DNA of 42,486 nucleotides from Pseudomonas sp. A-1 (GTDB taxonomy: Bacteria > Pseudomonadota > Gammaproteobacteria > Pseudomonadales > Pseudomonadaceae). Below the pieces are notes generated by a model. That model made no database searches and was not told where the DNA came from. It saw only the letters and a program-made list of their open reading frames with translations. Below, piece by piece: positions 17,476 through 30,581 of the stretch; within the stretch, counting starts at the first letter, position 1, and each line of letters starts with the position of its first letter. Position numbers and translations under genes: made by a program. The stretch lies in contig NZ_SSTC01000038.1 in NCBI RefSeq assembly GCF_004801855.1, positions 1 to 42,486 of the forward strand, in the 5' to 3' direction.

Positions 17476-18873
17476 TCACTCCTGCCCGTGGCCGCTCGGC
17501 GCATCGCTGCGGCGCTTGCGCGGGCTGCGCCGGCGCTTGCGCGGCGCGGCCTTGTCGCGGCCCTCGCCCTCGCTGAGGGCGCGGATCATGCCGCGGCGCT
17601 CGCTGTCGCTGGCGTCCTGGTAGCGCGTCCACCAGTCGCCGAGGCCGCCGGTTTCCTCGCCGGCCTCCTCGCGCAGCAGCAGGAAGTCGTAGCCGGCGCG
17701 GAAGCGCGGATTCTCCAGCAGCAGGTCGGCGCGCTTGCCGTGGCGGCGCGGCAGGCGCTCCTGCATGTCCCAGATCTCGCGCAGCGGCAGGGTGAAGCGC
17801 TTGGGGATGGCGGTGCGCCGGCACTGCTCGCTGATCACCTCGTGGGCGGCTTCCTGCAGGGCCGGCAGCGCCGGCATGCCGCGCGCCTGCAGCGCCGCGG
17901 CGCGTGCCGGCAGGGCCGGCCAGAGCAGGGCGGCGAACAGGAACGCCGGGGTCACTGGCTTGCCCAGGCGGATGCGCTCGTCGGTGTTGGCCAGCGCCTG
18001 GCGGATCAGCGCGCCGGCGTACTCCGGTTCGGCCTTCAGCGCCGCGGCGCTGGCCGGGAACAGCGGGGCGAACAGGCCGTAGTCGCAGAGCATCTCGAAG
18101 GTGCGCTCGCCCTGGCCGGACAGCAGCAGCTTGAGCACCTCGTCGAACAGGCGCGCCGAGGGAATGTCGTTGAGCAGCGGCGCCAGGCGGCGGATCGGTG
18201 CGGCGCTGTGCTTCTCGATGTCGAAGTCGAGCTTGGCGGCGAAGCGCACCGCGCGCAGCATGCGCACCGGGTCCTCGAGGTAGCGCTGCTCGGGATCGCC
18301 GATCAGGCGCACCAGGCGGCTGCGGATGTCGTGCACGCCGCGGGCGTAGTCGAGGATGCGCTCGCTGGCCGGGTCGTAGTAGAGGGCGTTGATGGTGAAG
18401 TCGCGGCGCTGGGCGTCGTCTTCCTGGCTGCCGTAGACGTTGTCGCGCAGGATGCGCCCGCTCTCGTGGCGCGCGGCCTGGGCGCTGTCCTCGTCGTCTT
18501 CGCCCTGCGGGTGGTGGGCGCGGAAGGTGGCCACCTCGATGATCTCGCGGCCGAAGTGCACGTGCACCAGCTTGAAGCGGCGGCCGATCACCCGTGCGTT
18601 GCGGAACTCGGCGCGCACCTGCTCGGGAGTGGCGCTGGTGGCCACGTCGAAGTCCTTGGGCGTGATGCCCAGCAGCAGGTCGCGCACGCAGCCGCCGACC
18701 AGGAAGGCCTGGTAGCCGGCCTGCTGCAGGCGCTCGACCACGTTCACCGCGTTGCGGCTGATCTGCTCGCGCTGCAGCGCGTGCTGGCTGCTGCCGAGCA
18801 CCTCCGGCGTGGTGCGAACGGCGCGGGCGCGGCGCAGGGGAGAACGGATGGACTGGAACAGCTTCTTCAGCAT
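17476..18873 (-). CDS. pcnB: Poly(A) polymerase I
   Basis: Adds 3' poly(A) tails that promote decay of mRNAs and small RNAs. The 465-aa protein starts MLKKLFQSIRSPLRRARAVR. It has the nucleotidyltransferase core FLVGGCVRDLLLGITPKDFDVATSATPEQV with the catalytic DFD (Asp74, Asp76), the RRDFTINALYYDP motif and DPVRMLRAVRFAAKL. The C-terminal tail is strongly basic (APRKRRRSPRKRRSD), typical of PAP I. I chose the ATG at 18873 over an upstream extension that is Pro/Arg-rich and overlaps the promoter. Only 136 bases separate it from cbrB. Confidence 0.95.
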   Translation of the reverse strand: MLKKLFQSIRSPLRRARAVRTTPEVLGSSQHALQREQISRNAVNVVERLQQAGYQAFLVGGCVRDLLLGITPKDFDVATSATPEQVRAEFRNARVIGRRFKLVHVHFGREIIEVATFRAHHPQGEDDEDSAQAARHESGRILRDNVYGSQEDDAQRRDFTINALYYDPASERILDYARGVHDIRSRLVRLIGDPEQRYLEDPVRMLRAVRFAAKLDFDIEKHSAAPIRRLAPLLNDIPSARLFDEVLKLLLSGQGERTFEMLCDYGLFAPLFPASAAALKAEPEYAGALIRQALANTDERIRLGKPVTPAFLFAALLWPALPARAAALQARGMPALPALQEAAHEVISEQCRRTAIPKRFTLPLREIWDMQERLPRRHGKRADLLLENPRFRAGYDFLLLREEAGEETGGLGDWWTRYQDASDSERRGMIRALSEGEGRDKAAPRKRRRSPRKRRSDAPSGHGQE

Positions 18874-18931
18874 GGGCGACAGGGTACCGGGATAGGGCGG
18901 GAGCGGGGACGGCCCCGCGCGATGGTGGCGG

Positions 18932-18961
18932 ATTCTAGCACTGGCTGGCGGCGATGGTGAA
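18932..18961 (-). promoter_or_regulatory. Probable pcnB promoter with extended -10
   Basis: On the minus strand, TTCACC (18961-18956) and, 18 bases on, TAGAAT (18937-18932) preceded by TGC, an extended -10. It lies in the short cbrB-pcnB gap. A GCGGGG/CCCCGC dyad (18903-18918) follows in the leader. The rest of the gap (18874-19009) holds no sigma-54 promoter and no A-rich Hfq/Crc motif. Confidence 0.5.
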
Positions 18962-19009
18962 CGCGGGGGCGGTAGCGGCCACCCCGGCAGGCGGCGGTGG
19001 GGCAACGCC

Positions 19010-20416
<1,407 letters not shown>

Positions 20417-20553: not shown

Positions 20554-23508
20554 TCACGGGGTGTCGGCAGCCAGCGGGCCGCCATAGCGCGGCAGGCTGA
20601 TCCGGATGCGCGTGCCGCGCTGGCGTTCCGGGTCTGCCGGGCTGTCGATGGTTATCTGTCCATAATGCTCCTCGACGATCGAATAGACCAGTGCGAGGCC
20701 CAGGCCGGTCCCTTTGCCGGGGTCCTTGGTGGTGAAGAAGGGTTCGAACAGGCGCTCGACGATCGACTGCGGGATGCCCGGCCCCTCGTCCTCGACCATC
20801 AGCTCGACGCTGTCGGCGCCGGCCTCGCTGCGCACGCGGATGGCGCCGCCGGGCGGCGAGGCGTCGCGGGCGTTGGACAGCAGGTTGATCAGCACCTGGG
20901 CCAGGCGCTGCGGGTCGCCCTCGACCCAGTGCTGCGGGTCGCACAGGTTGAAGTAGTGCACGTCGTAGTCGCGGTTGAGCGACAGCAGGCCGATCGCCTC
21001 GCGCGTCACGTCGGCCAGGCACACCGGCTCGCTGGCCTGCTGGCGGCCGCCGGCGTGGGCGAAGCTCATCAGCGACTGGACGATGCGGGTGATGCGCTTG
21101 GTCTGCTCGATGATCTGCGCGCAGGTCTCGCTGATCTCGGCGTCGCCTTCGCGCTCCTCGCGCAGGTTCTGCGCCAGGCAGGCGATGCCGGTGACCGGGT
21201 TGCCGATCTCGTGGGCCACGCCGGCGGCGAGGCGGCCGATCGAGGCCAGGCGCTCGGAGTGGATCAGGCGATCCTCCAGCAACTGGGTCTCGGTGAGGTC
21301 CTCGACCAGCAGCACCAGGCCGCTGGTGCCGGGGGCCAGCGGCTCGTCGATGGCCGCCTTGTGCAGGTTGAGCCAGCGGGTCTGGCCGTCGAGGGCCAGG
21401 CGCTGCTTGTGCAGGTGCTCGTCGGGCGCTTCGCTGAAGGCGGTGAGCAGGCCGCACCAGGGCTCGGGCAGGGTGGCCAGGCGCGAGCCGACCACGCGCT
21501 GCGCCTCGATGCCGGTGAGTTCCTCCATGGCGCGGTTCCACTTGAGGATCTCCTGGTCCTGGGCCAGCGAGCAGACCCCCATCGGCAGCTCCTGCAGGGT
21601 CTGCCGGTGGTAGCGGCGCAGGGCGTCGAGTTCGGCGGCCAGGCCGGTCAGGCGCGACTGGTAGTCCTCCAGGCGGCTCTCGATGAAATGGATGTCCTCG
21701 GTGACATAGGTGTCGTCGGCGGCCTTGTAGGGCAGGAAGCTCTCGACGATGTCCTGGGCCACGCTCGGCCCCATCAGCCCGGACAGGTTGGCCTCGATGC
21801 GGTCGCGCAGGCGGCGCAGGGCGTAGGGGCGCTGCTCGTCGAAGGGCAGGCCGAGGTCGCGCAGGGCCTGCTCCACCTCGCGCTGGGCGGTGCGCGCGCC
21901 GAGCGGCTTGGCCAGCTCGGCGGCGAATTCCTGCGGCGAGGCGGCGACCAGCTCGCGGCGCTGCGGGCGGCGCACGTTGTCCACCGCGCAGGTCTCGGCG
22001 GCGCCCTGTTCCTCGGCGCTCGGCTCGCTGAACAGCGAGACCAGGGTGAACACCAGCACGTTGACCGCCAGCGAGGCGATCGCCGCCAGGTGCCAGCTGG
22101 TGTCGTCGAGCACGTAGACCATGTCCAGCAGCGGCAGGTAGAAGCCGGGCAGGTTGCCGATCAGCGGCAGCAGCATGCTGACGATCCACACGCTGGCGCC
22201 GGCCAGCAGCCCGGCGATGAAGCCGCGGCGGTTGGCCGCCGGCCAGTACAGCACCGACAGCGCGCCGGGGAGGAACTGCAGGGTGGCGACGAAGGATACG
22301 GTGCCCAGGTGCGACAGCTCCTGGCCCGAGTCGATCAGCAGGTAGAAACCGTAGCTGCCGGCGATGATCGCGACGATCAGGCCGCGGCGGGTCCACTTCA
22401 GCCAGCGGTAGATGTTGCCCTCGGCCGGCGGCTGGTACAGCGGCAGCACCACGTGGTTGAGCACCATGCCCGACAGCGCCAGGGTGACCACGATGAGCAG
22501 GCCGCTGGAGGCGGACAGCCCGCCGATGTAGGCGGCCAGCACCAGCCAGGGGTTGCCGACGTCCATGCCGATGCCCAGGGTGAAGTATTCCGGGCTGGTG
22601 GCGACGCCGAGCTTGAGGCCGGCCCACAGGATCGGCGGCACCGCCAGGCTCATCAGCAGCAGGAACAGCGGCAGCGCCCAGCTGGCGCTGACCAGCGCGC
22701 GCGGGTTGAGGTTCTCGGCGAAGGCCATGTGGAACATGTGCGGCATGACGATGGCGGCGGCGAAGAACACCAGCAGCAGGGTGCGCCAGGGACCTTCCTG
22801 CAGCGGCGTGTGCAGGGTGGTCAGCGCCTGCTGGTTCTGCAGCAGCCACTGCTCGAGGCCGGCCGGACCGTCGAACACGCCATACAGGGCGTACAGGCCG
22901 ATGGCGCTCATCGCGCACAGCTTGACCAGCGACTCGAAGGCGATCGCCAGCACCAGGCCCTCGTGGCGCTCGCGGGTGGCGATGCGCCGCGAGCCGAAGA
23001 GGATGGTGAACAGCGTGATCAGCGCACAGAAGCCCAGCGCCACGCGGGTCTGCACGCGTTCGCCGGTGATGATGCCGATGCTGTCGGCGACCGCCTGGAT
23101 CTGCAGGGCGAGCAGCGGCAGCACGGCCACCAGCATGAACAGGGTGGTCAGGGTGCCGGCCCAGGTGCTGCGGAAGCGGAAGGCGAACAGGTCGGCCAGC
23201 GAGGACAGCTGGTAGGTGCGGGTCAGGCGCAGGATCGGGTAGAGCAGCACCGGGGCGAGCAGGAAGGCGCCGGACAGGCCCAGGTAGATGGCCAGGAAGC
23301 CGTAGCCGTACTGGTAGGCCAGGCCCACCGCGCCGTAGAACGCCCAGGCGCTGGCGTACACGCCCAGCGACAGGGTGTAGACCAGCGGGTGGCGCACCAG
23401 CGCGCGCGGCAGGGGGCTGCGTTCGGTCAGCCAGGCGAGGCCGAACAGCACCACCAGATAGACCGAGCTGATCAGCAGCAGATGGGAAACGTCAAAGCTC
23501 GTCGGCAT
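20554..23508 (-). CDS. cbrA: Sensor histidine kinase CbrA
   Basis: A 984-aa CbrA. Residues about 8-495 form an SLC5/sodium-solute-symporter-like membrane domain with roughly a dozen hydrophobic segments. A STAC-type linker follows at about 520-610, then a PAS-like domain at about 630-740. The kinase has H-box [14 protein letters not shown] with His766, N-box [13 protein letters not shown]1 VEDEGPGIP and G2 [18 protein letters not shown]. CbrA of pseudomonads links histidine transport or sensing to CbrB phosphorylation. The start at 23508 overlaps the end of the small cbrX gene by 17 bases, so cbrA translation is probably coupled to cbrX. Confidence 0.95.
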
Positions 23509-30417: not shown

Positions 30418-30438
30418 GGAGGGGCCATTCCGCCAGGC

Positions 30439-30465
30439 AAAAAAAGACCCGGCGCGTGCCGGGTC
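30439..30465 (-). terminator. Intrinsic terminator of prrF
   Basis: An 8-bp perfect GC-rich stem with a GCGT-type loop followed on the minus strand by seven T (plus-strand A-run 30439-30445). It defines the sRNA 3' end. Confidence 0.92.
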
Positions 30466-30547
30466 GAAACCGTGATTAGCCTGATGAGGAGATAAACCGG
30501 AGAAACGACTGCCATCTCTCGTTTATCGGCCGGTCTCGCGACCAGCT
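30439..30547 (-). ncRNA. prrF: Iron-responsive sRNA of the PrrF/ArrF family (single copy)
   Basis: An sRNA of about 109 nt read on the minus strand between the cNMP-protein gene and phuW. The 5' part has AGCTGGTCGCGAGACC, a small GGTC-GCGA-GACC hairpin. A middle stem pairs GATAAAC with GTTTATC. The conserved antisense core CTCCTCATCAGGCTAATCAC follows, then the terminator stem GACCCGGC/GCCGGGTC (30446-30465) with a run of seven T. The core and both ends match my memory of P. aeruginosa PrrF and A. vinelandii ArrF. These are made under iron starvation and block mRNAs of iron-using enzymes with Hfq. Only one copy is seen, against two in tandem in P. aeruginosa. No protein is encoded. Confidence 0.9.
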
Positions 30548-30552
30548 GAGTT

Positions 30553-30571
30553 GATGATAATTGTTTTCATT
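30553..30571 (-). promoter_or_regulatory. Fur box over the prrF promoter
   Basis: The 19-bp site starting GATGATAATTG on the plus strand matches the palindromic Fur consensus GATAATGATAATCATTATC at about 12 of 19 positions by my count. It overlaps the -10 and spacer, so iron-loaded Fur should block transcription. The match together with the sRNA leaves little doubt. Confidence 0.85.
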
Positions 30572-30581
30572 TAAGAGTCAA
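30554..30581 (-). promoter_or_regulatory. prrF sigma-70 promoter
   Basis: On the minus strand, TTGACT (30581-30576), a 16-bp spacer, and TATCAT (30559-30554). Transcription should begin near 30547, at the start of the conserved 5' hairpin. Confidence 0.8.

What the first reader, a model, noticed from the sequence alone, without database searches (positions are those of the whole stretch)
18874..19009. No CrcZ sRNA between cbrB and pcnB
In Pseudomonas, CbrB activates the sRNA CrcZ through a sigma-54 promoter, and crcZ lies between cbrB and pcnB. Here the gap is only 136 bases. It holds an extended -10 promoter for pcnB and a GC-rich dyad, with no -24/-12 element and no repeated AANAANAA motif that would bind Hfq/Crc. 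CbrB keeps its phospho-Asp and GAFTGA loop, so the regulator looks active but its main local target is gone. Either the sRNA has moved, a second sRNA such as CrcY does the work, or the catabolite-repression output of CbrAB is rewired in this lineage.
Basis: partly seen in the sequence, partly recalled or inferred. Interest (0 to 1): 0.75.

Follow-up and report, generated by a model that had tools for sequence, protein, structure and literature searches.

The report
CrcZ RNA gene deleted, copies remain
A soil-type relative of Pseudomonas has cleanly lost the small-RNA gene that normally sits beside its carbon-control regulator, but keeps three copies of that RNA elsewhere, so the control circuit probably still works and has only lost its usual address.

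Summary
The cbrB-pcnB gap is 136 nt, without CrcZ, strict -24/-12 element or AANAANAA motif. A one-contig genome of the same species has the same gap, so it is not an assembly error. Six congeners have 625-807 nt there with an ordinary crcZ. The alignment shows one clean loss (about 495 nt against the sister species) of the cbrB terminator, two of three CbrB subsites, the IHF-like and sigma-54 sites and the whole sRNA; pcnB's promoter stays.

The CbrAB output is not gone. The genome holds three full-length CrcZ-family genes elsewhere (250-253 bits), each with F1/R1/R2 CbrB sites, an IHF-like site, GG-N10-GC and 11-13 AANAANAA matches. Crc, Hfq and RpoN are encoded.

The wider finding: this genus (probably Geopseudomonas) carries 2-5 copies over seven sites. 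Their RNA bodies look homogenised between copies, and in the sister species and three other genomes the cbrB-linked copy stands outside that pool. The likely cost of the deletion is the read-through, RpoN-independent CrcZ* supply. That step is inferred; nothing was measured in the cell.

The parts
18874..19009 (-). cbrB-pcnB intergenic gap, 136 nt: scar of the crcZ deletion
   Evidence: six congeners have 625-807 nt here with crcZ; the same-species one-contig genome has the same 136 nt
19010..20416 (-). cbrB, response regulator (468 aa), receiver Asp and GAFTGA kept
   Evidence: 90-95% identical to CbrB of the six congeners
20554..23508 (-). cbrA-like ORF (984 aa) upstream of cbrB
   Evidence: ORF; named from position and membrane/kinase-like sequence by eye, not tested by profile
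17476..18873 (-). pcnB, poly(A) polymerase, now directly downstream of cbrB
   Evidence: its N-terminus matches the gene that follows crcZ in relatives
19001..19007 (-). decayed remnant of CbrB subsite F1: CGTTGCC where the six congeners have TGTTACC
   Evidence: Alignment; R1 and R2 subsites deleted
18932..18961 (-). conserved pcnB promoter (TTCACC-N18-TAGAAT, extended -10 TG)
   Evidence: conserved in all 8 genus genomes aligned; promoter by consensus only
18978..19003 (.). GC-rich dyad (arms 18978-18985 and 18996-19003), no T tract
   Evidence: sequence; fold of the gap not better than shuffles

Best explanation
The gap is a deletion scar. An ordinary crcZ gene, its sigma-54 promoter, its IHF-like site, two of its three CbrB subsites and the cbrB terminator were lost from between cbrB and pcnB in this species. 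The CbrAB-to-Crc/Hfq circuit is kept by three dispersed CrcZ-family genes (sites A, B, C), each with its own CbrB sites and sigma-54 promoter. Under poor carbon supply CbrB would activate these three promoters, and their A-rich motifs would sequester Hfq/Crc as CrcZ does. Shown: the deletion, the three genes, their control motifs, and the presence of crc, hfq and rpoN genes. Inferred: that they are expressed and functional; that loss of the cbrB-linked copy removes the CrcZ* made by read-through from the cbrB promoter; and that cbrB transcripts may now run into pcnB.
For: Three RF01675 hits in the own genome, full length, 250-253 bits against a cut-off of 95; three in the one-contig genome of the same species, none beside cbrB. 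Alignment of the gap with 6 congeners shows one clean loss. Each of the three copies has TGTTAC, GTAAC and GTAAC at about -150/-130/-108, YAANNNNTTGATW at -59, TGGCAC-N6-TGC at -27, 11-13 overlapping AANAANAA matches and a GC-rich terminator. The triple-site pattern hits 3 places in the own genome and 26 in the 8 genus genomes; all 26 lie upstream of a CrcZ copy, and the reversed-pattern control gives 0. The layout is the F1/R1/R2 + IHF + GG-N10-GC arrangement dissected in P. putida (PMC6296734, passages). Crc matches PDB 4jg3 at E 2.4e-152; Hfq and RpoN are present. Crc/Hfq antagonism by CrcZ, CrcY and CrcX comes from papers seen as passages.
Against: No expression data. CbrB, IHF and sigma-54 binding at the three sites is by motif only. 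Exact boundaries and mechanism of the deletion are not resolved. Two same-species genomes do not prove that the whole species lacks it.
Confidence: 0.88

Rival explanations
1. The catabolite-repression output of CbrAB is truly lost or rewired in this lineage: CbrB now serves only other targets.
For: The cbrB-crcZ neighbourhood is gone, and read-through CrcZ* from cbrB can no longer form.
Against: Three full-length CrcZ-family genes with CbrB/sigma-54 control motifs remain, and crc, hfq and rpoN genes are present.
Confidence: 0.06
2. The sRNA moved: the cbrB-linked copy was transposed to one of the new sites, so loss and gain are one event.
For: Site C is occupied in this species and in G002 but was not found in the sister G004.
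Against: Sites A and B are occupied in congeners that also keep crcZ at cbrB. The site C copies of this species group with G002's site C copy (support 94/94), not with cbrB-linked copies, and G002 has both site C and the cbrB-linked copy occupied.
Confidence: 0.05
3. Assembly collapse removed crcZ from the gap in this draft genome, since repeated sRNA copies can confuse short-read assembly.
For: The own genome is a 246-contig draft with three similar copies.
Against: The single-contig genome of the same species has the same 136-nt gap, and the cbrB end and pcnB promoter align on both sides of it.
Confidence: 0.01

Closest known systems
CrcZ of P. aeruginosa / P. putida (Rfam RF01675)
   Same: RNA covered end to end by the family model, A-rich Hfq/Crc motifs, CbrB F1/R1/R2 sites, IHF-like site, sigma-54 promoter motif, GC-rich terminator
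   Different: No copy at the usual cbrB-pcnB address in this species; three dispersed copies instead
CrcY (P. putida, A. vinelandii) and CrcX (P. syringae)
   Same: Second or third CbrB-controlled members of the same RNA family away from cbrB (papers seen as passages)
   Different: Neighbour genes of eight chosen copies of this genus found no shared neighbourhood that identifies a site in 15 loci around copies of other lineages, so orthology to CrcY or CrcX is not shown; in P. putida crcY follows PP3539-mvaB
[quoted passage not shown]
   Same: The arrangement in the 6 congeners with a cbrB-linked copy could make it
   Different: Cannot be made from the cbrB promoter here, because crcZ is gone from behind cbrB; sites A and B lie just after co-directional ORFs and might substitute (inference)

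Membership tests
CrcZ family (RF01675), window gap 18874-19009 | Match to the family covariance model | tested here: not met
   no RF01675 match in the window at the gathering score
CrcZ family (RF01675), window gap 18874-19009 | CbrB sites and -24/-12 promoter | tested here: not met
   only a decayed F1 left
CrcZ family (RF01675), the three copies at C178, C99, C232 | Full-length model match over the gathering score | tested here: met
   250.3-253.1 bits, positions 1-398 of 398, cut-off 95
CrcZ family (RF01675), the three copies at C178, C99, C232 | CbrB F1/R1/R2 sites, IHF-like site and sigma-54 promoter motif | tested here: met
   3 of 3 copies, by motif
CrcZ family (RF01675), the three copies at C178, C99, C232 | Several AANAANAA Hfq/Crc motifs | tested here: met
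   13, 13 and 11 overlapping matches at sites A, B and C
CrcZ family (RF01675), the three copies at C178, C99, C232 | CbrB-dependent expression and sequestration of Hfq/Crc in the cell | not testable with these tools
   Needs RNA and binding assays
CrcY / CrcX as named orthologues | Same chromosomal neighbourhood as CrcY or CrcX of other genera | tested here: inconclusive
   five weak protein matches in 15 loci, none that identifies a site; the P. putida and P. syringae loci themselves were not compared
Genus Geopseudomonas (GTDB Pseudomonas_K) | Five-residue insertion in MurD, region 372-421, reported as specific to the clade (PMC10797017, passages) | tested here: met
   present in 5 of 5 genus genomes read (at about residue 384 of the protein), absent in 14 of 15 other family genomes; the 15th (G012) lacks four of the five; the match is 1317 nt in 7 of 7 genus genomes, 1293-1305 in 15 of 16 others, 1314 in one. 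Only 1 of the clade's 15 published indels was tested

The most novel reading that the evidence does not exclude
In this genus the CrcZ unit (CbrB sites, IHF site, sigma-54 promoter, RNA, terminator; about 540 nt) behaves as a dispersed multigene family kept alike by gene conversion. The cbrB-linked copy, the one shared with the rest of the family, stands outside that pool in this lineage, diverged, and in this species was deleted. Release from catabolite repression thus lost its read-through, RpoN-independent floor and depends wholly on phospho-CbrB and sigma-54, or on read-through into the copies at sites A and B.
Probability: 0.35. Interest if true: 0.6.

Novelty: new variant of a known kind. 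Interest (0 to 1): 0.45.

Why it matters
A 2022 review (PMC8871633, passages) calls the cbrA-cbrB-crcZ order highly conserved in Pseudomonas and Azotobacter. Here is a natural, clean loss of that copy with the rest of the circuit encoded, in a genus with up to five copies. It is a natural experiment on why pseudomonads keep redundant CrcZ-type RNAs, whether the cbrB-linked read-through copy is needed, and how regulatory RNA families spread and stay alike. It is also a practical warning: annotating crcZ by position would call this system broken when it probably is not.

Tried and rejected
Assembly collapse: rejected by the one-contig same-species genome. A hidden structured RNA in the 136 nt: the fold is no better than shuffles and there are no motifs. 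Relocation of the cbrB copy: sites A and B coexist with crcZ in congeners. Matching the non-cbrB sites to second copies of other lineages by neighbour genes: five weak protein matches, nothing that identifies a site. The gaps of five more distant relatives (L037-L041: 731-955 nt) are not in the count of 30; L034, L036 and the five rearranged genomes showed no pcnB downstream and have no gap value; G010, whose CrcZ is next to cbrB by coordinates, was not measured.

Errors of mine, mended: the sigma-54 expression had the wrong spacing and printed None for all 27 copies, the corrected one finds the element in 27 of 27; gap values of minus-strand loci were wrong and were recomputed, 7 of 18 MurD rows were read on the wrong strand, redid the test in the right frame with 20 rows.

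Results against a simple 'demotion of the cbrB copy' story: in G003 the non-cbrB copy is the lowest scoring; in G005 and G006 the cbrB copy is as close to its paralogues as they are to each other, which could also mean that it was overwritten there rather than that it left the pool elsewhere; few tree branches are firm (4 of 24); and the diverged cbrB copies keep their control sites, so they are not pseudogenes.

Full report
WHAT WAS CHECKED. The gap between cbrB (19010-20416, minus) and pcnB (17476-18873, minus) is 18874-19009, 136 nt. The window as a whole has no RF01675 match at the gathering score; cmscan lists only PrrF and the S15 leader. On both strands of the gap there is no strict -24/-12 element, no GTTAC/GTAAC, no exact IHF consensus and no AANAANAA. 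CbrB keeps VVSDLRLPG and GAFTGA.

NOT AN ARTEFACT. A second genome of the same species, in one contig (G056), has the same 136 nt. Among 30 other measured cbrB-pcnB gaps in Pseudomonadaceae the range is 587-815 nt, median 682; these are 29 distinct genomes, because L035 (Serpens gallinarum) is the same assembly as G021. Comparing the coordinates by eye, a CrcZ hit lies just downstream of cbrB in 23 of 28 Pseudomonadaceae genomes outside the genus (G007-G034). In the other 5 (G012, G017, G023, G028, G033) it lies elsewhere or was not found, but in all five pcnB was not found after cbrB in the 2.0-2.8 kb read either. In those lineages the neighbourhood was rearranged, which is a different event from the clean loss seen here. 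One search used stricter filters and can miss weak copies.

WHAT HAPPENED. Aligning the gap with six congeners shows a single clean loss, net 495 nt against the sister species G004 (631 to 136). Congeners have, in order: cbrB stop, CbrB subsite F1 (TGTTACC), R1, a terminator-like hairpin with R2 in its loop, an IHF-like site, the -24/-12 promoter, crcZ with its terminator, and the pcnB promoter. The window keeps only a decayed F1 (CGTTGCC, 19001-19007) and the pcnB promoter (TTCACC-N18-TAGAAT, 18932-18961). With the cbrB terminator gone, cbrB transcripts may run into pcnB (inference).

WHERE THE OUTPUT IS. The own genome has three full-length CrcZ-family genes: G000:C178:22042-22436 (+), C99:10338-10733 (-), C232:4210-4605 (-), at 250-253 bits against a gathering score of 95 (0 of 14 control genomes ring). 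Each has F1/R1/R2 at about -150/-130/-108, an IHF-like site at -59, TGGCAC-N6-TGC at -27, 11-13 overlapping AANAANAA matches and a GC-rich terminator. This is the arrangement dissected in P. putida (PMC6296734, passages). As an independent test I searched the pattern TGTTAC-N12-16-GTAAC-N15-20-GTAAC in the 8 genus genomes. It gives 26 hits, all upstream of one of the 27 CrcZ copies, with 0 hits of the reversed control; in the own genome exactly 3. The one copy without it is G004:C23, whose R1 is altered. An exact IHF consensus is present in 22 of 27 promoters, against 22 of 5,400 mononucleotide shuffles of the same 110-nt regions; the sigma-54 element is found in 27 of 27. Hfq, Crc (best PDB match 4jg3, Catabolite repression control protein, E 2.4e-152) and RpoN are encoded.

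A GENUS-WIDE FAMILY. The 8 genus genomes carry 3, 3, 4, 5, 2, 4, 3 and 3 copies (G000, G056, G001-G006). Flank comparison (then read by hand) gives seven sites. Z (cbrB-pcnB) is occupied in 6 of 8 genomes, all but the two of this species. A is occupied in 8 of 8 (G003 by its downstream flank only), B in 6, C in 3, D in 2, A' (beside A, in G001) in 1 and E in 1. The script's automatic clusters were coarser: they lumped A, A', D, E and Z through one shared ~600-base stretch and the A/A' overlap. I discounted the 600-base stretch as a likely paralogous gene; that is a judgement. In a draw of 248 Pseudomonadaceae genomes, the 240 outside the genus have 0-3 copies: seven have none and six have three. 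That search used stricter filters and scored only five candidates per genome, so undercounts are possible.

WHICH GENUS. It is probably Geopseudomonas (GTDB Pseudomonas_K). Genome sizes of 3.2-4.7 Mb equal the published range (PMC10797017, section 26 and passages). The clade's five-residue MurD insertion is present in 5 of 5 genus genomes read and absent in 14 of 15 other family genomes read, the 15th lacking four of the five residues. Window GC of 69.4% is slightly above the published 66.4-68.3% for whole genomes.

WHAT IT MAY COST. In P. putida and A. vinelandii, read-through from the cbrB promoter gives CrcZ*, a processed form that does not need RpoN; an A. vinelandii rpoN mutant, which makes mainly CrcZ*, grew on acetate but not on fumarate or malate (PMC6292655, passages). 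That source cannot exist here. Sites A and B lie just downstream of co-directional, coding-like ORFs (stops at -183 and -193 from the RNA start), and site C does not (ORFs judged by codon-position GC, not annotated), so A or B could supply a read-through form. This is inference.

LITERATURE. In the listings (30 of 96 papers shown; 17 of 18; 15 of 66, from 2023 on; 12 of 29) no title or abstract start reports more than three copies or loss of the cbrB-linked crcZ. I read passages of PMC6292655, PMC8871633, PMC6296734, PMC11332353 and PMC10797017 (plus its section 26), no whole paper; the library omits most subscription journals. The original CrcX paper was not held.

VERDICT. It is a new arrangement of a known system: clean loss of the usual copy within an expanded CrcZ family.

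Noticed in passing
L133 2905-3060 (G004) and the same place in 5 other congeners: In the six cbrB-linked loci aligned the third CbrB subsite (GTAAC) lies in the loop of the terminator-like hairpin after cbrB, so one stretch of DNA may serve as terminator and as activator site.
   Followed up: partly
G001: L185 and L186 (copies at C10:132801-133193 and C36:218899-219298): Two CrcZ copies are 98-100% identical over the first ~240 nt of the RNA but differ in promoter and 3' part, as expected for a gene-conversion tract.
   Followed up: partly
27 CrcZ copies in the genus (L162-L188): Six of seven sites place the CrcZ unit shortly downstream of a co-directional coding-like ORF, which would allow read-through as for CrcZ*.
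   Followed up: partly
27 CrcZ promoters printed (L162-L188): A CTGGG block (CCGGG in the cbrB-linked copies, within the hairpin) recurs between CbrB subsites R1 and R2; its role is unknown.
   Followed up: no
window 30438-30581 (-): A PrrF iron-responsive sRNA (122.8 bits); only one match in this window.
   Followed up: no
G012, G017, G023, G028, G033 (L220-L224): In these five Pseudomonadaceae genomes pcnB was not found after cbrB; CrcZ is elsewhere or was not found (none in G017 and G033, genus g12).
   Followed up: partly
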